Positions 30,774 to 41,680 of a stretch of DNA of 64,000 nucleotides are shown piece by piece. Source of the DNA: Sphingopyxis sp. GTDB taxonomy: Bacteria > Pseudomonadota > Alphaproteobacteria > Sphingomonadales > Sphingomonadaceae. The stretch lies in NCBI GenBank assembly GCA_030145715.1, contig JAIXHQ010000016.1, positions 1-64,000 on the forward strand, given 5' to 3'. Position 1 is the first letter of the stretch, and each line of letters opens with the position of its first letter. The position numbers were made by a program, and so were the translations under genes. Under the pieces are notes generated by a model. That model was given only the letters and a program-made list of their open reading frames with translations, did no database searches and was not told the DNA's origin.

Positions 30774-31940
30774 TCAGAGCGATTTGTCGTAGATCTGATA
30801 CACCCGGTTGACCTTTGCCTCGATCGCGTCGGCCACCGCGTTCATTCCCTGATTATCGTCGAGAACCCAGCCGATGTCGCCGCGCCCCGCACCATAATCG
30901 CGCACGGCGTCGCGGCGGATATATTCGATCATCATGAAAGCGAGTGTGCTGGCCATGCGGCTGTTCTGCAATTTCTTTGTAACGCCCATCAACGGCACAC
31001 GCAGGATATGGCTTTGCGGCTTGCGCAGCCACCACAGCAGGCGCGCCCAATTGAAGGGGAGCAGCGACCCGCCCATGTCGGCCAGCAACTGGTTGATGTT
31101 CGGCAGCACGATCATGAACGCGACGGGTTCGCCATCGACTTCGGCCACGCGGATCAGGTCTTCGAACACAATGTCCTTCAGCTTTTTGCCGACATAGGCG
31201 ATTTCGCTGTCGGTCAATGGGACAAAGCCCCAATTGTCCGACCAGGCATCGTTGAGCAGCCCCATGATGAGCGCCGCTTCTTCGGCAAAGCGGCGCTTGT
31301 CGACATTGCGGATGCGGATGCGCGCGTTTTTGGCGCCTGCCGCGACGATACGGTTCACGAGCGGCGGAAAGCCGTCGGCGATCGCGACGTCATAGTTCAA
31401 AAGCTGTTTGACTGGCCGGTATCCGGACGCCTCAACCCAGCCGCGATAGAGCGGGCTGTTGTGGCCCATCATCACCGTCGGCCGGTTGTCGAACCCCTCG
31501 ATCAACAGGCCGGGCTCGTCCCAGATCGATATGGACAGCGGACCCAGTGAGCGATGCATCCCCTGACCCCGCAGCCAGTCCTCGGCGGCGAGAAGCAGGG
31601 CCTGTGCGGCGGGTTCGTCTTCGGCTTCGAGCAGGCCCCAGTTGCCGGTGCCGGGCCCCATGCCCTGTTCGGCGGGCTGCAAAAGCGCGAGGTCGTCGAT
31701 ATGCGCGGATATGCGGCCGACGGTGCGGCCGTCGCGGCGCGCCAGAAACTGGTGCGCCCTGCCATGCTCGAACCACGGATTCTTGCCGGGCGTCAGGAGG
31801 GCATATACCTCGCCCTTCAGCGGTGGCACCCATGCCGGATCGCCGCGATTGAGGCGATATGCAAGCTCAACGAACTCGCGCAAATCGGCCTTTGTCTGAA
31901 CCGGATGGATAGTAATCGGACCGTCGTTATGAGCACTCAT
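30774..31940 (-). CDS. GNAT-fold acyltransferase, probable bacterial ceramide synthase (bCerS)
   Basis: The 388-residue protein begins with a GNAT-like half (ITIHPVQTKADLREFVELAYRLN, AHQFLARRDGRTVGRISAHID) and has a second acyltransferase-like half (LRSLGPLSISIWDEPGLLIEGFDNRP, FLPFNWARLLWWLRKPQSHILRVPLMGV). In Caulobacter the enzyme that N-acylates the long-chain base is a GNAT-type protein encoded near spt. This gene's length and its position about 10 kb from spt, beside a desaturase, fit that enzyme. Orthology rests on family impression and context, not on alignment. It is divergent from the desaturase. Alternative: an unrelated GNAT protein. Confidence 0.62.
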   Translation of the reverse strand: MSAHNDGPITIHPVQTKADLREFVELAYRLNRGDPAWVPPLKGEVYALLTPGKNPWFEHGRAHQFLARRDGRTVGRISAHIDDLALLQPAEQGMGPGTGNWGLLEAEDEPAAQALLLAAEDWLRGQGMHRSLGPLSISIWDEPGLLIEGFDNRPTVMMGHNSPLYRGWVEASGYRPVKQLLNYDVAIADGFPPLVNRIVAAGAKNARIRIRNVDKRRFAEEAALIMGLLNDAWSDNWGFVPLTDSEIAYVGKKLKDIVFEDLIRVAEVDGEPVAFMIVLPNINQLLADMGGSLLPFNWARLLWWLRKPQSHILRVPLMGVTKKLQNSRMASTLAFMMIEYIRRDAVRDYGAGRGDIGWVLDDNQGMNAVADAIEAKVNRVYQIYDKSL

Positions 31941-33225: not shown

Positions 33226-34326
33226 CTATTCCTCGGTTCGGATCAGGATCATCTCGCCGATCAGGGCGAACAGGATGAACGGCCCCCACGCCGCGAGAAA
33301 GGGCGAATAGGCGCCCAGATCACCCATCGCGAGCGCGAAATTGTCGGCGACGAAATAAGCGAAACCCAGCGCCATGCCCAGGATCGCGCGCACGAACAGC
33401 TTGCCCGACCGCGCAAGGCCGAACGCCGCGACGGCGCCGAGCAGCGGCATCAGGATTGCCGACAGCGGTCCCGAAATCTTGTGCCACAACACGCCCTTCA
33501 GCGCGCCGACGGGCCGCCCCGCGGCTTCGAGGTCAGCGATCGCCGACTGAAGCTGAAGGAAGGGAATTTCGCTGCCGTCCACTTGCGCCAGCGTGAACTG
33601 ATCGGGGCGCACATTCCTGGCCGCGACGATCGTTCCCAATTGTTCGAGAGTCCCCGAACGGCGAACGAAGCGCCTCGCGTTGGTGAGTTCCCATCCGCCA
33701 CCCGCAATCGCGCGCGCGCTGTCGGCTGACAGCATCGACGACAATACGCCGCCGGTGCGCTCATAGATGGTGACATAGCCCAGAATGATCGCCGGGCCGC
33801 TGGTATCGACGGTCGTCGCATTGATAAGGTCATTGCCGTCGCGAACCCAGATATTGGTCCGTATCCCGCTGTCTTTCGGGACTTTCTTATACTCGACCTT
33901 TTGCCACGCGCTAAGCGCCGCGGTTGATCGGGTAACGATGCGTTCGTTAAAGACGAAGCTGATCCCGGCGACGAGAAAGGCGGCGAGGAACAAGGGGGCG
34001 AGCACCTGATGCGCCGACATTCCCGACGCCTTCATCGCGACGACTTCGCTGTTCTGATTGAGCGTGATCAGCGTCAGGATCGTCCCGAGCAACACCGAAA
34101 AGGGCAGGAAGGTCTCGATAATCTGGGGCAGCCGCATCCCGACATAACGCCACACGTCGGCGTTGCTGTTACCCGCCACGCCCAGGATCTTTCCGCTTTC
34201 GCCCAGAAGATCCAGCGTTTGCAGGATCAGCACCAGCGCGAACAGGATCGAGAAAGAGCGGACGAGGAACAGGCGGCCGACATAGAGCGCCATGGTACGC
34301 GACGGGAAAAAATGGAGTTGATGCAT
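33226..34326 (-). CDS. lptG: LptG, inner-membrane permease of the Lpt export complex
   Basis: A 366-residue LptF/LptG-family permease: three N-terminal helices (FLVRSFSILFALVLILQTLDLL, LPFSVLLGTILTLITLNQNSEVVAMKASGMS with the coupling-helix pattern), a periplasmic beta-jellyroll (about 120-265) and three C-terminal helices. With LptF and LptB2 it extracts envelope lipid from the inner membrane. Its ATG directly abuts the lptF stop codon. It lies between the desaturase and lipid-kinase genes of a putative sphingolipid cluster. Confidence 0.93.
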   Translation of the reverse strand: MHQLHFFPSRTMALYVGRLFLVRSFSILFALVLILQTLDLLGESGKILGVAGNSNADVWRYVGMRLPQIIETFLPFSVLLGTILTLITLNQNSEVVAMKASGMSAHQVLAPLFLAAFLVAGISFVFNERIVTRSTAALSAWQKVEYKKVPKDSGIRTNIWVRDGNDLINATTVDTSGPAIILGYVTIYERTGGVLSSMLSADSARAIAGGGWELTNARRFVRRSGTLEQLGTIVAARNVRPDQFTLAQVDGSEIPFLQLQSAIADLEAAGRPVGALKGVLWHKISGPLSAILMPLLGAVAAFGLARSGKLFVRAILGMALGFAYFVADNFALAMGDLGAYSPFLAAWGPFILFALIGEMILIRTEE

Positions 34327-35547
34327 TTAGGTCGAACTCTCCACCGCCGGTGCCTTGCGCTGGAACAGGCGGAACATGGCGCGAATTTTCTGCGCCGATT
34401 TGGCCGCGACGCGTTCGAGTGCGCCGATCGGCTGACCGCCGGGGACATGCGCGACGGTGTAATACATCCAGATCGCCAGCCCCGCGAACAAAAGGAAGGG
34501 GACCCACAGCGCGATCAGCGGATCGATCGTCCCGCGCGCGCCCATATCCTCCGCATATTGATTGATCTTGTGCTGCGTCACCAGCAGCACGATCGACAGG
34601 AAGACGCCGAGGGAGGAGGTGGATCGTTTCGGAGGGATGGCCAATGCGATGGCGATCAGCGGGATCAGGAACATCGACACGACCTCGACGATACGAAAAT
34701 GGAAATTCGCGCGCGTTTCGAGCCGGGTCTGTACCGACTGACGCGGATCCTTTCCGGCGACGAACAATTCGGGGATCGTCATTTCGCGATCGGCGCCGCC
34801 ACGGGTGCGGAACGCCTCGATCTTTGGCAGCGGGATCGGCAGGTCGTGGTTGTCGAACGTCAGCACGCGCGGCACCGCGAATTTCGGCGATTCGTGGATC
34901 AGCACGCCCTGCGACAGGCGCAGGATGATGGTGTTCGGATCGTCGGTGGCAAGGAACTGACCCCGCGCCGCGGTCGCCGAAACGCGCTGTCCGTCCTTGT
35001 TGTCGCCGCGGACGAAGATGCCGCGCAGCGATCGCCCTTCGTCATAGCTTTCCTCGATCCTGAGCGTCATGCGGTCGCCCAATTGGGTAAATTCGCCCAC
35101 CTTGATCGACGCGCCCAGTGCGCCCGACCGCAGTTCGAATTGCAGTCCTTCATAGGCATAGCGGGCGACGGGCTGAACAAAACCGACGATCGCCAGGTTC
35201 AGCGCGGCGAGCGCGATGGCATAGGCATAGGGCACACGCATCAGCCGCCCAAAGCTCATGCCGACACCCTTTAGCACGTCGAGTTCGCTTGACGTCGCCA
35301 GCCTGCGAAAGGCGAGCAGGATGCCCAGCATTAGTCCGATCGGAATGCCGAGCGAGAGATATTCGGGAATCAGGTTGGCGAGCATCCGCCACACGACGCT
35401 GACCGGCCCCCCTTCGGTCGCGACGAAATCGAAAAGGCGCAGCATTTTTTCGAGCACGAGCAGCATCGCCGACAGGACGAGGGTGCCCAGCATCGGAAAG
35501 AAAATGAGCCGCGCGATATAGCGGTCGATGGCAGGAAGCTTATTCAA
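34327..35547 (-). CDS. lptF: LptF, inner-membrane permease of the Lpt export complex
   Basis: A 406-residue partner of LptG with the same architecture: DRYIARLIFFPMLGTLVLSAMLLVLEKMLRLFDFV, PIGLMLGILLAFRRLATSSELDVLKGVGMS (coupling helix), a periplasmic domain (about 130-300) and C-terminal helices (VVSMFLIPLIAIALAIPPKRS). It is transcribed before lptG without a gap. In LPS bacteria the pair exports LPS. Sphingomonads carry glycosphingolipids instead, so the cargo here is probably a sphingolipid (inference). Confidence 0.93.
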   Translation of the reverse strand: MNKLPAIDRYIARLIFFPMLGTLVLSAMLLVLEKMLRLFDFVATEGGPVSVVWRMLANLIPEYLSLGIPIGLMLGILLAFRRLATSSELDVLKGVGMSFGRLMRVPYAYAIALAALNLAIVGFVQPVARYAYEGLQFELRSGALGASIKVGEFTQLGDRMTLRIEESYDEGRSLRGIFVRGDNKDGQRVSATAARGQFLATDDPNTIILRLSQGVLIHESPKFAVPRVLTFDNHDLPIPLPKIEAFRTRGGADREMTIPELFVAGKDPRQSVQTRLETRANFHFRIVEVVSMFLIPLIAIALAIPPKRSTSSLGVFLSIVLLVTQHKINQYAEDMGARGTIDPLIALWVPFLLFAGLAIWMYYTVAHVPGGQPIGALERVAAKSAQKIRAMFRLFQRKAPAVESST

Positions 35548-35678
35548 TCTTTCGTCGCCCCATCACCATGATTTGGCCGCAGTTGTTACCGATATGCCGA
35601 TTCAAGGGCGACAGGGACCCATGTCGGCGCGCGTTTTCGCTCGCGGGGATGGCTATAGCCTCTGGAGGTATTGAGGTC

Positions 35679-36185
35679 ATGTCGAAAATATATCTCGCCG
35701 GATTGCTTGCTGCCGGTGCGTTGATCGCGCCCGTCGCGGCGCAGGGTGCCGCACTGGGGCCGAGCGCCGCCCTGTGCAACAGCAACGCCACCGCCGTCCA
35801 GGTCGAGGTTCGCGGCTTCAAACAGCGCACCGGCACGGTCCGCGTACAGATTTACGGCGCGAACAACAGCTATCTGGAAAAGCGCAAATGGCTGGAGCGG
35901 ATCGATGTGCCGGTTTCGCGCGAGGGCACGATGGCGATCTGCGTCCCGGTCAAGGAACAGGGCAGCTATGTCGTTTCGGTTCGCCATGACATCAACGGCA
36001 ACGGCAAGTCGGACCGCAAGGACGGCGCGGGCCTGTCGGGAAATCCCGACATGAAGGTCAGCGACTTCATCTTCAAGCGCAAGCCAAAGCTGGCGCAGGT
36101 GAGTTTCGCGGTCGGCGACGCGACCAAGCGGGTGCCGGTGGTACTGAATTACGTCAACGGACTGTCTTTCGATCCGGTGAAATAG
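35679..36185 (+). CDS. Exported DUF2141 protein
   Basis: A 168-residue protein with a signal peptide (MSKIYLAGLLAAGALIAPVAAQGA) and a DUF2141 beta-sandwich. The DUF2141 core reads VEVRGFKQRTGTVRVQIYG, VPVSREGTMAICVPVKEQGSYVVSVRHDINGNGKSD and, later, MKVSDFIFKRKPKLAQVSFAV. It is periplasmic or outer-membrane-associated; the family function is unknown. GGAGGT lies about nine bases before the ATG at 35679. It is first in a tight operon with the lipid kinase (six-base gap) and Tam41-like gene, implying a role in handling or modifying the lipid product. Confidence 0.83.
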   Translation: MSKIYLAGLLAAGALIAPVAAQGAALGPSAALCNSNATAVQVEVRGFKQRTGTVRVQIYGANNSYLEKRKWLERIDVPVSREGTMAICVPVKEQGSYVVSVRHDINGNGKSDRKDGAGLSGNPDMKVSDFIFKRKPKLAQVSFAVGDATKRVPVVLNYVNGLSFDPVK

Positions 36186-36191
36186 GGACTT

Positions 36192-37166
36192 ATGGCCAGC
36201 GTCGCGCTTCTTTCGAATCCTCGCTCGACAGGTAATCGCGCCCTGTTGCCGCGCGTTCGCGAATATTGCGCGGCCCATCCAGATATTTTCCATTACGAGG
36301 TCGAGGATGTCGACCAGATCGAAAAGGCCGTCCGCACCATGGCGATGGTCGGTCCGCGCGTCGTCGTCATCAACGGCGGCGACGGGACGGTGCAGGCGGC
36401 GCTGACCGAGATTTACTCGGGTGGCCATTTCGATGGATCGCCGCCGCCGGTCGCCGTGCTTCCCAACGGCAAGACCAATCTGATCGCGCTCGATCTTGGC
36501 GCAGAGGGCAACCCGATCAAGGCGCTGCGCCGCGTCGTCGAACTGGTGGAAAGCGGCCGGCTGGAGGATCATGTGATCGAGCGCCAGTTGATTTCGCTCG
36601 ACAGCGGCGACGAAACGCGGCCGGTGCTGGGCATGTTCCTAGGCGGGGCCTATCTGGCCGATGTGATGATCTATTGCCGCGACCGTATCTATCCGCTGGG
36701 CCTGCCCAATGGGGTGTCGCATGTCCTGGCGGCCATCCTGGGCCTGTTCGCGATCATTTTCGGTATCGGTGGCGGGCGGTTCCCGCCCAAGCCGCAGCCG
36801 ATGACCGTGTCGCTGATCCGCCATGGGGAATTCGAGGGCAAATTCTCGCTGCTGATCGTCACGACGCTGGAAAAGCTGTTGCTCAGTATTCGTACCAGCG
36901 GGCCGCCCGGCAGCGACGGCAATATGAAATTGCTTGCGACCGACAGCAATGTCGGCGCCATGTTCCGGATGCTCGGCGCGACCTGGCGCGGAACATTGGG
37001 ACAAAAGCCGCTCGACGGTGTGCATTTCCAGCAGGGCGATGAAATCCGTATCGAAGGCGAACGATCGAGCGTCATTCTGGACGGAGAGCTGTTTCAGGCC
37101 AAGAACGGCATGCCGATCATCCTGACATCGACCCAGCCGGTTCCGTTCCTGCGCCTCGCCGCCTGA
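36192..37166 (+). CDS. Diacylglycerol/ceramide-type lipid kinase (YegS/LCB5 family)
   Basis: A 324-residue lipid kinase of the DAGK/sphingosine-kinase fold. The nucleotide site NGGDGTVQAAL (about 61-71) and VLPNGKTNLIALDLG (about 90-104) are clear, as is a C-terminal substrate domain with DGVHFQQGDEIRIEGERSSVILDGELF. A hydrophobic segment (HVLAAILGLFAIIFGIGGG) may contact the membrane. The Caulobacter ceramide kinase near spt belongs to this fold, so ceramide is a candidate substrate here; diacylglycerol is the alternative. It is tightly linked to a Tam41-like nucleotidyltransferase. Confidence 0.82.
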   Translation: MASVALLSNPRSTGNRALLPRVREYCAAHPDIFHYEVEDVDQIEKAVRTMAMVGPRVVVINGGDGTVQAALTEIYSGGHFDGSPPPVAVLPNGKTNLIALDLGAEGNPIKALRRVVELVESGRLEDHVIERQLISLDSGDETRPVLGMFLGGAYLADVMIYCRDRIYPLGLPNGVSHVLAAILGLFAIIFGIGGGRFPPKPQPMTVSLIRHGEFEGKFSLLIVTTLEKLLLSIRTSGPPGSDGNMKLLATDSNVGAMFRMLGATWRGTLGQKPLDGVHFQQGDEIRIEGERSSVILDGELFQAKNGMPIILTSTQPVPFLRLAA

Positions 37167-37172
37167 GCCGTC

Positions 37173-38033
37173 GTGCCTGAACTGATCGATCTGGTCCGCG
37201 ACGAATTGTCCGCCCCCGTCGACCCGCGCGCCGCAGCGATGGCGCGCGCGATCGCCGCGCAATATCCCGGCAGCGCGCGGGCGGTGCTTTTTTACGGAAG
37301 CTGTCTGCGCGAAAGCGAACTCGACGGGCTGATGCTCGATTTCTACCTGATCGTTTCCGATTATGGCGATGCCTATCCCCGGCGCTGGATGGCGGTGGCC
37401 AACCGGATGATCCCGCCCAATGTCTATCCGTTTCAGCACGACGGGCTGATCGCCAAATATGCGGTGCTGAGCGAAGCCGATTTCGACCGGCTGAACGGTG
37501 TCGAGACGCGCAACGTGTCGGTGTGGGCGCGCTTTGCCCAGCCGTCGCGGCTGGTGTGGGCGGTCGACGACACGGCGCGCGACCGCGCCATCGCTGCGGT
37601 GTCGCGCGCGGCCCCGACCTTGCTGGCGGCGGCGGGCGCGATCCCGGGCGAAGCTCCGCTCGACTGGTGGCGGCGCGCCTTCACGCTGACCTATTCGGTC
37701 GAGCTTCGCGCCGAAAGGACGAGCCGGGCCCAATCGGTGGTCGATGCCGATCCTGAAAGATATGAACGGTTCAGCCCGGCCTCGATAGCGGCGGTTCCGG
37801 CGGCGGCGCGCGGCGGCGGCTGGGCCCGGCGCCGATGGGAAGGAAAGCTGCTCAGCGTCGCGCGGCTGGCGAAGGCCAGCCTGACCTATGCCGGGGGAAT
37901 CGATTATCTGGCGTGGAAGATCAACCGCCACGCGGGCACGCGGATAGAGATCAAGCCATGGCAACGCCGCTGGCCGCTGGTCGCCGCGCTGACGCTGGTG
38001 CCCCGGCTGATGAAAAGCGGGGCGATCCGCTAG
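37173..38033 (+). CDS. Tam41-like nucleotidyltransferase, candidate lipid-phosphate cytidylyltransferase
   Basis: A 286-residue soluble protein. Residues about 40-64 (FYGSCLRESELDGLMLDFYLIVSDY) show a nucleotidyltransferase GS...D...D pattern. Further on come PPNVYPFQHDGLIAKYAVLSEADF (about 81-104) and VSVWARFAQPSRLVW (about 115-129). This order matches mitochondrial Tam41, which makes CDP-diacylglycerol from phosphatidate and CTP (YGSG...DFIF, KYGVIS, W..LY.AGRL..PV). It starts six bases after a lipid kinase whose product would be its substrate. No bacterial function is established to my knowledge. Confidence 0.65.
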   Translation: MPELIDLVRDELSAPVDPRAAAMARAIAAQYPGSARAVLFYGSCLRESELDGLMLDFYLIVSDYGDAYPRRWMAVANRMIPPNVYPFQHDGLIAKYAVLSEADFDRLNGVETRNVSVWARFAQPSRLVWAVDDTARDRAIAAVSRAAPTLLAAAGAIPGEAPLDWWRRAFTLTYSVELRAERTSRAQSVVDADPERYERFSPASIAAVPAAARGGGWARRRWEGKLLSVARLAKASLTYAGGIDYLAWKINRHAGTRIEIKPWQRRWPLVAALTLVPRLMKSGAIR

Positions 38034-38131: not shown

Positions 38132-40105
38132 TCAACCGTGCAGGTGCTGGCGTTCGCCCGGCCGCGCATCGCCGCATCGCCGTATCGCCTGATCGAGCGC
38201 GGTCAGCGTAAAGGGTTTGCGCAGCACATCATGATCGCCAAAGCTGGCGACCTCGCTGGCGTCGCCAGCATAGCCGGTCACGAACAGAACCGACAGTTCG
38301 GGCCAGCGCCGTTTCAACTGGGCGACCATTTCGGGGCCGGTAAGTTCGGGCATCAGCACGTCCGACAGGATCAGGTCGAACCCGCCCGCGCCCTCCGCCA
38401 TCCGGCCTTCGACCAGCGCCTCTGCGTCCAGCGGATTGCCGCAGGCGACGGCCGTGTGGCCCAGTTCGCTGACCGCATCGACCGTCGCGGCCAGAACACG
38501 CTCATCGTCCTCGACGACCAGAATGCTCATCGCGTCCGCGGGCGCGGCGGGGCCCGTCGCGTCGCCGGGCGCTGTGTCGGCCACCGGGTCGGCCACCGGC
38601 TTTGCCATCGGCAACAGCATCGCGACGCTCGTGCCTTCGCCCTCGGTCGACGAAATCTGGACTTCGCCGCCCGACTGGCGGCAAAAGGCAAAGACTTGGC
38701 TCATGCCAAGGCCGGTGCCCTGACCCGCGGGCTTGGTCGTGTAAAAGGGGTCGAACACGCGTTCGAGAACCTCGGGCGACATGCCGCAGCCATTGTCGAT
38801 GACCCGCACGGCCAGCGCCCGTTCCGTCCCGTCGTCGAGCGTCTGGATCGTCAGCGACCCATGGCCGTTCATCGCATCGCGCGCGTTGACGGCCAGGTTC
38901 AGCAGCGCATTCTCGAACTGCTGGCGATCGACCCAGCAGGCCAGGCCGTCGGCCTGAAGGTCGAGAGTCAGGGCGATACGGTCGCCGATCGTTCGTTCGA
39001 TCAGTTCGGCAAAGCCCGCGATGCAATCGTCGATGACGGTCATTTCGGGGCGCGCCGGTTCCGACCGGGCAAAGGTCAACAGCCGCCGGGTCAGGTCGGC
39101 GGCGCGGTTGGCACCATCGAGTGCGTTGACCAGATGGCGCTGCGCCTTTTCCGGGGTGCCGGGCAACCAGCGTTGCGCCAGTTCCAGCCCGCCGACAACG
39201 ACGGCGAGCATATTGTTGAAATCATGCGCGATGCCGCCGGTCAACTGTCCGACCGCCTCCATCTTTTGCGCCTGGCGAAGCTGGGCTTCGGCGGCTTCGC
39301 GGTCGCTCATCTCATTGCGCAGCGCCGCGTTGGCGTGGGCGAGTTCGGCGGTGCGTTCCTCGACCGCGGTTTCCAGGTGCATCGCGCGGTCGCTCTCGAA
39401 AATCTGCTCGCGCCTTGCCAGCCGCCGTTCGCCGTCTGCGCGGATCAGCGAAAAGGTCGCGCCGATCGCGATGACCGCAGCGGCCGCGCCGAGCAGCGAA
39501 AACAGCAGGATAGCCTGATTCAGGTTCGCGCGGTCGGCGGCGGCCAGGCGGTTGCGATCGCGCAGCAGGGCGCGTTCGTTCACGATGATCTCGCTCAACA
39601 GCTTGTCGATCCGGCCCAGCCCCGGACCCTTGCCGGCGGCATAGAATTTCGAGATGGCGGCGACGGTCTGATTGTAATTGGCGCTGAGCGCGGCATCGCC
39701 CAGTTGGGCGCCGCGGCTGTCCATTTCGCGCGTCAATTGTTCGACGAGCGCCATCTGTTTCGGGTTGTCGCGGACATTTCGCTGCAATTGGGCCAGGAAC
39801 TGCCGCGCGCGGCCCCATTGATATTCGTAAACGCGCCCGTCCTCTTTCTGCAGTCCGACCGCGAAGCGCCCCAGCGCGGCTTCGGCGCGGGCGATCGCGG
39901 CATCGACCGAACGGGTCTGTGAAATGACCTCCATGCTCTGCGTCTGCCAGCCGAGCGAGCGGTCGTAATTATCGTTGGCGCGTGCGAGCAGCACGACGAG
40001 CGCCCCGACCACACCGGTCAGGATCGCCCCAAGGACGATCGTCGACCAAAAGCGCATACGCTCCCGCCGACCGTCGTTTTCGCTGTCGCTATCCCTCTCG
40101 AACAC
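38132..40105 (-). CDS. Hybrid sensor histidine kinase with receiver domain
   Basis: This 657-residue membrane kinase has TM1 (STIVLGAILTGVVGALVVLLA, about 20-40), a CHASE3-like helical periplasmic domain (about 45-210), TM2 (AILLFSLLGAAAAVIAIGATFSLI), a coiled segment, HisKA with GGIAHDFNNMLAVV, a HATPase_c domain (NLAVNARDAM, DNGCGMSPEV, GQGTGLGMS) and a C-terminal receiver (ILVVEDDERV, Asp in LILSDVLMPE, LRKPF). A GTG start at 40105 is chosen because TAAGGAG precedes it at good spacing. It lies between the lipid-kinase operon and spt; its output partner is unknown. Confidence 0.9.
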   Translation of the reverse strand: MFERDSDSENDGRRERMRFWSTIVLGAILTGVVGALVVLLARANDNYDRSLGWQTQSMEVISQTRSVDAAIARAEAALGRFAVGLQKEDGRVYEYQWGRARQFLAQLQRNVRDNPKQMALVEQLTREMDSRGAQLGDAALSANYNQTVAAISKFYAAGKGPGLGRIDKLLSEIIVNERALLRDRNRLAAADRANLNQAILLFSLLGAAAAVIAIGATFSLIRADGERRLARREQIFESDRAMHLETAVEERTAELAHANAALRNEMSDREAAEAQLRQAQKMEAVGQLTGGIAHDFNNMLAVVVGGLELAQRWLPGTPEKAQRHLVNALDGANRAADLTRRLLTFARSEPARPEMTVIDDCIAGFAELIERTIGDRIALTLDLQADGLACWVDRQQFENALLNLAVNARDAMNGHGSLTIQTLDDGTERALAVRVIDNGCGMSPEVLERVFDPFYTTKPAGQGTGLGMSQVFAFCRQSGGEVQISSTEGEGTSVAMLLPMAKPVADPVADTAPGDATGPAAPADAMSILVVEDDERVLAATVDAVSELGHTAVACGNPLDAEALVEGRMAEGAGGFDLILSDVLMPELTGPEMVAQLKRRWPELSVLFVTGYAGDASEVASFGDHDVLRKPFTLTALDQAIRRCGDARPGERQHLHG

Positions 40106-40208
40106 GCTCAACTCCTTACCGGACAAGCGCGGCGTCGCAAAGCGCGGAAATCCGCGCCGCATCAACTCGCCTCGAAAAGGAATCCGCTGGTCGGCCGATG
40201 TAACCGGT

Positions 40209-41411
40209 TCAACCGATGATCTGGGTGCGTTTGCCCGCGCGTTCAAAGCGTGCAAGGATTTCGCCGACCTGTTCGATACTATGTTCGGCGCACAGCGAAC
40301 AGCGCAGCAGCGTCATTCCCGCGGGGGTTGCGGGCGGGCGGGCAAGGTTGACGTACAATCCCTCTTCCAGCAACGCCTCCCACATCAGCGCACCGCGTTC
40401 GAGGTCGGGCATGATGACCGCGATGATCGCCGACTGCGGTTCGTCGGTGCCCAGCGTGAAGCCAAGGTCACGCAGCCCCTTGTGCAGCACCTTTGAATTT
40501 TCCCACAGATGGGCGCGCTTGTTCGACCCGTGCATCAGCTTGCGGATGCTGGTCGCGGCGGTCGCGACGACGCTGGGCGGCAACGAGGCGGTGAACACAT
40601 AAGGACGGCAGACGAGCCGCATGATCTCGAACTTCGGATGGTTCGATACGCAGAAACCGCCGACCGTCCCGACGCTCTTGCTGAATGTGCCGATGACGAA
40701 ATCGACATCGTCCAGCACGCCCTGCGCTTCGGCGACGCCGCGGCCATGTTCGCCGATGAAGCCCATCGAATGCGCCTCGTCGACCAGCACCATCGCGCCG
40801 GCTTCCTTCGATACGCGGATCATTTCCTTGAGCGGCGCAATGTCGCCGAGCATCGAATAGACGCCTTCGAGCACGACCAGCTTGCCGGCGTCGGCGGGCA
40901 GGCGCTTCAGCCTTTTTTCTAGCGCCTCGACATCATTGTGGCGAAAGGCGACGATTTCGGCGTCGCCCATCTTGCACCCGTCATAGATCGACGCATGGCT
41001 GTCGATGTCGAGGATGACATAGTCGCCCTTGCCCGCGATCGTCGAGATGATGCCGAGGTTCGCCTGATAGCCCGTCGAAAACACCATGGCATGATCCATG
41101 GCGTAAAATTCCTTGAGCGCGTCCTCGCACTCCTTGTGGCCCTGATAGGTGCCATTGAGGACGCGGCTGCCGGTGGTGCCGCTGCCGAATTTTTCAAGCG
41201 CATCCTTGCCCGCGGCGATGACATCCTCGTCAAAGGTCATGCCCATATAATTATAGGTGCCAAGCAGGATCGTCTCGCGCCCGTTGCAGATCGCGACGGT
41301 CGGGGAAATCACCTTTTCCATCACCATGCTGAACGGGTCGGTGATGCCGGTCGACAGCAAGGCTTCGCGCTGCTGGATCAGCGGGTCGAATTTCGAAAAG
41401 AGGTCGGTCAT
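40209..41411 (-). CDS. spt: Serine palmitoyltransferase
   Basis: A PLP enzyme condensing L-serine with an acyl thioester to 3-ketodihydrosphingosine, the first step of sphingolipid synthesis. The 400-residue protein follows the Sphingomonas SPT closely: GTYNYMGMTFDEDVIAAG, VFSTGYQANLGIIS, DSHASIYDGCKMG, LVDEAHSMG, the PLP lysine in GTFSKSVGTVGG, and RPPATPAGMTLLRCSLCAEH near the end. The SPT call over KBL/BioF rests on this last motif and on the adjacent acyl carrier protein. It is cytosolic. It lies 32 bases downstream of the acp gene. Confidence 0.93.
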   Translation of the reverse strand: MTDLFSKFDPLIQQREALLSTGITDPFSMVMEKVISPTVAICNGRETILLGTYNYMGMTFDEDVIAAGKDALEKFGSGTTGSRVLNGTYQGHKECEDALKEFYAMDHAMVFSTGYQANLGIISTIAGKGDYVILDIDSHASIYDGCKMGDAEIVAFRHNDVEALEKRLKRLPADAGKLVVLEGVYSMLGDIAPLKEMIRVSKEAGAMVLVDEAHSMGFIGEHGRGVAEAQGVLDDVDFVIGTFSKSVGTVGGFCVSNHPKFEIMRLVCRPYVFTASLPPSVVATAATSIRKLMHGSNKRAHLWENSKVLHKGLRDLGFTLGTDEPQSAIIAVIMPDLERGALMWEALLEEGLYVNLARPPATPAGMTLLRCSLCAEHSIEQVGEILARFERAGKRTQIIG

Positions 41412-41443: not shown

Positions 41444-41680
41444 TCAGCCCTGCAGTTTTTCGACCGCTGCGACCAACTGGCCGACCGTCTCGATCTCTGC
41501 CTGCATGTTCATGCTGATGATGATGTCGAACGTGTCTTCGACCTCGGCGACGAAATCCATCACCGTCAGGCTGTCCCATTCGAGGTCGCCGGCAAAGCTG
41601 GTCGTGTCGGTCAGTGCGACGCCCTTTTTGTTGAAGGGTTCGATCAGGCCGAAAATCTGGTCGCGCAGGGCGGTGCTCAT
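41444..41680 (-). CDS. Dedicated acyl carrier protein for sphingolipid synthesis
   Basis: This 78-residue acyl carrier protein has the 4-phosphopantetheine Ser in LEWDSLTVMDFVAEVEDTF (DSL motif, about 35-37). It precedes spt in the same direction. In Caulobacter a specialised ACP beside spt supplies the acyl donor for serine palmitoyltransferase, so the same role is likely here. No acyl-ACP synthetase or ketodihydrosphingosine reductase gene is in the window. Confidence 0.88.
   Translation of the reverse strand: MSTALRDQIFGLIEPFNKKGVALTDTTSFAGDLEWDSLTVMDFVAEVEDTFDIIISMNMQAEIETVGQLVAAVEKLQG

What the first reader, a model, noticed from the sequence alone, without database searches (positions are those of the whole stretch)
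37173..38033. Bacterial Tam41-like protein paired with a lipid kinase
The protein shows, in order, a YGS...D...D nucleotidyltransferase core, KYAVLS, and SVWARFAQPSRL, matching the Tam41 layout (YGSG...DF, KYGVIS, W..LY.AGRL). Tam41 makes CDP-DAG from phosphatidate. The upstream kinase would make a lipid phosphate (ceramide-1-phosphate or phosphatidate), so a CDP-ceramide or CDP-lipid intermediate is possible. I know of no described bacterial enzyme making CDP-ceramide.
Basis: partly seen in the sequence, partly recalled or inferred. Interest (0 to 1): 0.78.

Follow-up and report, generated by a model that had tools for sequence, protein, structure and literature searches.

The report
Likely CDP-ceramide synthase (CpgC relative)
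This Sphingopyxis gene encodes a relative of CpgC, a protein needed for phosphate-containing sphingolipids in Caulobacter, and it most likely attaches CMP to ceramide-1-phosphate, a step whose chemistry is still unproven.

Summary
The ORF at 37173-38033 is real and conserved; the window is Sphingopyxis. Its predicted structure matches Tam41 (CTP:phosphatidate cytidylyltransferase) best of all solved structures: the top five Foldseek hits are bacterial and mitochondrial Tam41 (E 2e-7 to 2e-5). Pfam's Tam41 model misses the window protein but passes its cut-off in one diverged homologue. Across 23 diverse homologues D56, K95, W118 and R120 are invariant.

The gene lies with a CpgB-type kinase, serine palmitoyltransferase, acyl carrier protein, a ceramide-synthase-like acyltransferase and LptF/LptG. 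In 190 alphaproteobacterial genomes it occurs only where serine palmitoyltransferase occurs (21 of 21), and all 21 carriers checked for ordinary CdsA have it. So it belongs to sphingolipid rather than bulk phospholipid synthesis.

It is very probably the orthologue of Caulobacter CpgC (CC_1161), whose loss abolishes ceramide phosphoglycerate. An NDP-activated ceramide made by CC_1161 was already proposed in 2024; the mechanism was still called unidentified in 2026. The best explanation is CTP + ceramide-1-phosphate -> CDP-ceramide + PPi, unproven. This is a new member of a known but biochemically uncharacterised kind.

The parts
37173..38033 (+). Tam41-like nucleotidyltransferase, probable CpgC/CC_1161 orthologue (286 aa)
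36192..37166 (+). lipid kinase, DAGK_cat with GGDG motif, probable CpgB/CC_1160-type ceramide kinase (324 aa)
   Evidence: PF00781, 9.9e-14; for linkage to the nucleotidyltransferase; PMC10331486 for CpgB activity
35679..36185 (+). DUF2141 protein (CC_1157-like position); its start is placed inside the ORF that begins at 35568
   Evidence: PF09912; also in other alphaproteobacterial and Roseomonas clusters
34327..35547 (-). LptG-type permease
   Evidence: PF03739
33226..34326 (-). LptF-type permease
   Evidence: PF03739
32059..33198 (+). fatty acid desaturase/hydroxylase family protein
   Evidence: PF00487, 2.1e-29
30774..31940 (-). GNAT-like acyltransferase, counterpart of bacterial ceramide synthase (CC_1154) by cluster position; assignment inferred
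   Evidence: weak Acetyltransf_1; conserved in the clusters
40209..41411 (-). serine palmitoyltransferase
   Evidence: NF047603, 803 bits, cut-off 670
41444..41680 (-). acyl carrier protein of the sphingolipid cluster
   Evidence: PF00550

Best explanation
The gene encodes the Sphingopyxis CpgC. The neighbouring CpgB-type kinase makes ceramide-1-phosphate. The Tam41-fold CpgC then uses CTP and Mg2+ to attach CMP to it, giving CDP-ceramide and pyrophosphate, much as Tam41 turns phosphatidate into CDP-diacylglycerol. A still unidentified CDP-alcohol-phosphotransferase-type enzyme would then exchange CMP for glycerate (or phosphoglycerate, followed by dephosphorylation) to give ceramide phosphoglycerate, which LptF/LptG-type machinery would carry outward. 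Shown here: fold, conserved active-site pattern, genomic context, strict co-occurrence with sphingolipid synthesis. Shown by others in Caulobacter: CpgB activity and the CpgC requirement for ceramide phosphoglycerate. Inferred: orthology to CpgC, CTP as donor, ceramide-1-phosphate as acceptor, CDP-ceramide as product, and the condensing enzyme.
For: Foldseek on two models puts Tam41 in ranks 1-5 (E 2.1e-7 for 7ecd with CTP-Mg; 276 aligned columns, query 286 residues), several hundred-fold or more ahead of other nucleotidyltransferases (model pLDDT 89.5). A homologue beside Spt and ACP passes PF09139 (that locus). A single invariant Asp in the nucleotidyltransferase motif fits Tam41, said to retain one of three acidic residues (PMC11646218). 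In 18 diverse alphaproteobacterial loci, serine palmitoyltransferase lies within about 10 kb in 16 (one only as a fragment at a contig end) and a kinase is detected next to the gene in 16. Nucleotidyltransferase and serine palmitoyltransferase co-occur 21/0/4/165 in 190 genomes, p = 3e-24, without correction for kinship. CdsA is present in all 21 carrier genomes checked, own genome included. Genetics: loss of CC_1161 removes CPG and CPG2 and moderately raises ceramide (PMC11324152). CpgB is a ceramide kinase (PMC10331486). Loss of CpgD, which makes CDP-glycerate, leaves CPG intact (PMC12275187), so activation for the first headgroup is more likely on the lipid side.
Against: No assay exists. 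The window protein has no Pfam or NCBIfam match of its own, and the TM-score to Tam41 is only 0.51-0.53. The enzyme that would use CDP-ceramide is unknown. The CC_1161 sequence could not be fetched for direct alignment. In Sphingobium the kinase is mostly not next to the gene. CpgA is not found in the own genome or most family members tested, so the final lipid here is uncertain.
Confidence: 0.66

Rival explanations
1. CpgC attaches glycerate directly to ceramide-1-phosphate with nucleotide hydrolysis, through an enzyme-bound CMP-lipid intermediate that is never released. It would then be a one-enzyme CPG synthase.
For: The original proposal assigns C1P to CPG conversion to CpgC alone, and no separate condensing enzyme has been found (PMC11324152).
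Against: The protein has the plain nucleotidyltransferase plus helical-domain layout of Tam41 and no recognised second catalytic domain. The authors call direct attachment energetically not very favourable.
Confidence: 0.15
2. It is a second CDP-diacylglycerol synthase acting on phosphatidate, and its effect on sphingolipids is indirect.
For: Tam41 acts on phosphatidate, and a bacterial Tam41 makes CDP-DAG (PMC11646218).
Against: All 21 carrier genomes checked have CdsA. The gene occurs only with serine palmitoyltransferase and sits in ceramide clusters. Loss in Caulobacter removes phosphosphingolipids.
Confidence: 0.08
3. It makes a CDP-activated soluble headgroup (for example CDP-glycerate) for the first headgroup, while CpgD serves the second.
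For: CpgD does this with phosphoglycerate for CPG2 (PMC12275187).
Against: The fold is Tam41, not the COG1213 type of CpgD. The first headgroup also needs the ceramide kinase, which would be superfluous if CDP-glycerate reacted with ceramide.
Confidence: 0.07

Closest known systems
CpgC (CCNA_01219 / CC_1161) of Caulobacter crescentus
   Same: Nucleotidyltransferase beside a ceramide kinase in the spt/acp/lptF/lptG/ceramide-synthase region; described as carrying an InterPro CDP-DAG-synthase domain
   Different: Caulobacter has an adjacent CDP-alcohol phosphotransferase (CpgA) and has LpxC; the window's assembly shows neither; sequences not aligned directly
Tam41 / TAMM41 (PF09139), mitochondrial and bacterial; PDB 7ecd, 6ig2, 6ig4
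   Same: Best fold match; single catalytic acid pattern; nucleotidyltransferase domain followed by a mainly helical domain
   Different: 12-14% identity in the structural alignment; below the Pfam cut-off; sphingolipid rather than phosphatidate context
CpgB ceramide kinase (CCNA_01218)
   Same: DAGK_cat kinase with GGDG motif paired with the nucleotidyltransferase
   Different: The window kinase is its probable counterpart by family and position only
CpgD (CCNA_01210), CTP:phosphoglycerate cytidylyltransferase
   Same: CTP-using enzyme of the same pathway
   Different: Unrelated fold (COG1213 type); acts on phosphoglycerate, for the second headgroup
CdsA (PF01148)
   Same: Would be the same kind of reaction on phosphatidate
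   Different: Integral-membrane family; no match to the window protein

Membership tests
Tam41 (PF09139) | Score above the Pfam gathering cut-off | tested here: not met
   No match for the window protein; homologue L115 passes with 28.8 against 24 bits and L117 reaches 23.1. Filed as Tam41-like, not as a Pfam member.
Tam41 (PF09139) | Tam41 fold over the whole chain | tested here: met
   Ranks 1-5 of the PDB search in both models; 7ecd E 2.1e-7, TM 0.51/0.53, 276 columns. The TM-score is modest.
Tam41 (PF09139) | One retained acidic residue of the usual three, with basic residues around CTP | tested here: inconclusive
   The acid pattern is met: D56 invariant, Y58 not acidic, D51 not conserved; K95, R120, R179, R231, K234, K249 invariant; criterion from PMC11646218. 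E177 and E181 are also invariant, and no residue was mapped onto a CTP-bound structure.
Tam41 (PF09139) | Basic amphipathic C-terminal membrane helix | tested here: inconclusive
   Helices 262-266 and 268-281 with R/K-rich surroundings are predicted; membrane binding was not examined.
Tam41 (PF09139) | CTP:phosphatidate cytidylyltransferase activity | not testable with these tools
   Needs an enzyme assay.
CpgC (CC_1161) | Linked to a CpgB-type kinase and spt | tested here: met
   Window; 16 of 18 diverse loci with kinase and 16 of 18 with spt; kinase upstream in 59 of 80 sphingomonad loci, one of the rest truncated.
CpgC (CC_1161) | Found only in sphingolipid makers | tested here: met
   21 of 21 carriers have serine palmitoyltransferase; 4 spt genomes lack the gene.
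CpgC (CC_1161) | Sequence orthology to CCNA_01219 | not tested
   The Caulobacter sequence could not be fetched; a search for the published cpgB primer site found no match in 7 genomes of one candidate genus. PMC11324152 reports largely good orthologues of the cluster in Sphingomonas wittichii.
CpgC (CC_1161) | Deletion abolishes CPG | not testable with these tools
   Shown only in Caulobacter.
CdsA (PF01148) | Pfam match | tested here: not met
   No match; a separate CdsA exists in the genome.

The most novel reading that the evidence does not exclude
A diverged Tam41 branch, widespread in sphingolipid-making Proteobacteria and carried on some plasmids, makes free CDP-ceramide. Bacteria would then run a CDP-lipid branch on the sphingoid side parallel to CDP-DAG, from which one or more headgroups are built.
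Probability: 0.55. Interest if true: 0.75.

Novelty: new member of a known kind. Interest (0 to 1): 0.5.

Why it matters
CpgC's reaction is the missing chemical step between ceramide-1-phosphate and ceramide phosphoglycerate, the anionic lipid that helps Caulobacter survive without LPS. If it makes CDP-ceramide, it adds an activated lipid intermediate that I could not find by name in the open literature searched. It would also show that a mitochondrial-type CDP-DAG synthase fold has been used for sphingolipids. The Sphingomonadaceae tested, which lack LpxC, would be natural organisms for testing it.

Tried and rejected
Sequence profile searches against PDB chains gave no Tam41 hit; fold comparison was needed. 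A Pfam PF09139 search of the own genome and of 399 Pseudomonadota genomes found nothing over the cut-off, so Pfam misses this branch almost entirely. Identifying the Caulobacter locus through published cpgB primer sequences failed. CdsA membership was rejected (no match). The idea that CpgA (CDP-alcohol phosphotransferase) uses the CDP-ceramide for the first headgroup was considered and judged unlikely, because CPG forms without CC_1159 and most Sphingomonadaceae tested lack it.

Full report
What is there. The window is Sphingopyxis: the closest named relatives of the ORF are Sphingopyxis genomes at 85-89% identity. The ORF at 37173-38033 (+) encodes 286 aa from a GTG, 6 bp after a lipid kinase ORF (36192-37166). 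Across 23 homologues down to 29% identity, Y41-G42-S43, D56, P81-P82, K95, W118, R120, Q123-P124, E177, R179, E181, R231, K234, K249 and H253 are invariant, but D51 is not.

Is it Tam41-like? Pfam and NCBIfam give nothing for the window protein. Of 23 diverse homologues, two match PF09139; one, L115, passes the curated cut-off with 28.8 against 24 bits. L115 is alignable to the window protein over its length (31.6%, E 2e-46). AlphaFold models from a close alignment (pLDDT 82.8) and a diverse one (pLDDT 89.5) were compared with solved structures. In both, the five best hits are Tam41 chains, led by 7ecd, a Firmicutes Tam41 with CTP-Mg (E 2.3e-6 and 2.1e-7). The next families, an uncharacterised nucleotidyltransferase and aminoglycoside nucleotidyltransferases, follow at 1e-4 or worse. 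TM-scores are modest (0.51/0.53), so this is a distant relative. Tam41 is reported to keep only one of the three acidic residues usual for the fold (PMC11646218); the single invariant Asp of the nucleotidyltransferase motif here agrees. I did not map the residues onto a CTP-bound structure.

What it works with. The cluster holds serine palmitoyltransferase (803 bits, cut-off 670), an ACP, LptF/LptG, a DUF2141 protein, a GNAT-like protein in the ceramide-synthase position, a fatty acid desaturase and the kinase. A search of 190 alphaproteobacterial genomes found the nucleotidyltransferase in 21. Of 18 loci examined, serine palmitoyltransferase lies within about 10 kb in 16 and a kinase was detected in 16, with LptF/LptG and the acyltransferase in most. 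Conserved companions found by clustering and Pfam include an acyl-AMP ligase, a CDP-alcohol phosphotransferase (CpgA-like), a metallophosphoesterase (CC_1158-like) and an NTP_transf_3 protein (CC_1153/CpgD-like). This agrees with the published Caulobacter CC_1168-CC_1152 region. The gene occurs only where serine palmitoyltransferase occurs: 21 both, 0 gene alone, 4 spt alone, 165 neither (Fisher p 3e-24; relatedness not corrected). The 21 genomes checked for CdsA (20 of these carriers plus one more Sphingopyxis carrier) all have it, so CDP-DAG supply does not need this protein.

What is known. In Caulobacter, CC_1160/CpgB is a ceramide kinase (PMC10331486). Loss of CC_1161/CpgC removes CPG and CPG2 and moderately raises ceramide (PMC11324152). 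CpgD makes CDP-glycerate for the second headgroup, and its loss leaves CPG (PMC12275187). The 2024 paper notes a CDP-DAG-synthase InterPro domain in CC_1161 and suggests an NDP-activated ceramide. A 2026 preprint still calls the CpgC mechanism unidentified (PMC13228409). Searches for the term CDP-ceramide and close variants in the open-access library found no paper; subscription papers are mostly not held.

Mechanism. The first headgroup needs the ceramide kinase and CpgC but not CDP-glycerate, so activation is most simply on the lipid side: C1P + CTP -> CDP-ceramide + PPi, using the Tam41 chemistry. This is inference from published genetics plus the fold. The enzyme that would then add glycerate is unknown. 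Two of the diverse clusters (L103 and L116) and the Diaphorobacter plasmid carry two CDP-alcohol phosphotransferase genes, which makes a second one a candidate. No strong CpgA match was found in the own genome (88% complete) or in 9 others of the 12 Sphingomonadaceae tested, while NTP_transf_3 relatives are common. The final lipid in Sphingopyxis is therefore open.

Limits. Orthology to CC_1161 rests on context, family and the published report of orthologues in Sphingomonas wittichii, because I could not fetch the Caulobacter sequence. In 20 of 80 sphingomonad loci, nearly all Sphingobium, the kinase is not adjacent (one further locus is truncated), and I did not locate it elsewhere.

Noticed in passing
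window 33226-35547; genome G000: The only LptF/LptG pair found in this genome (and in a complete Sphingopyxis genome) lies inside the sphingolipid cluster, while LpxC is absent from all 12 Sphingomonadaceae searched. The sole Lpt permease pair may therefore serve sphingolipids rather than LPS.
   Followed up: partly
L154, L155, L156: Phosphosphingolipid gene clusters with this gene lie on plasmids: Pseudomonas sp. JS425 pPNP1 (IncP replicon, near an integron), the conjugative IncP plasmid pDCB2 of Diaphorobacter (with mer genes), and Roseomonas mucosa megaplasmids. The gene is annotated 'hypothetical protein'.
   Followed up: partly
L103, L116, L155: These clusters carry two CDP-alcohol phosphotransferase genes, so one may be the missing CDP-ceramide:glycerate transferase.
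   Followed up: no
G386, G616 and other Sphingomonadaceae: Only 2 of 12 genomes have a strong CpgA match although 10 of the 12 carry the CpgC gene, so many may stop at CPG or make another headgroup.
   Followed up: partly
window 38132-40255: A hybrid sensor histidine kinase on the opposite strand lies between the CpgC gene and serine palmitoyltransferase. Sphingobium loci L053 and L061 have an opposite-strand ORF of about 660 aa at the same place, which I did not annotate.
   Followed up: no
G012, G145, G066, G079: Four genomes have serine palmitoyltransferase but no CpgC homologue, possibly making only glycosylated or other sphingolipids.
   Followed up: no
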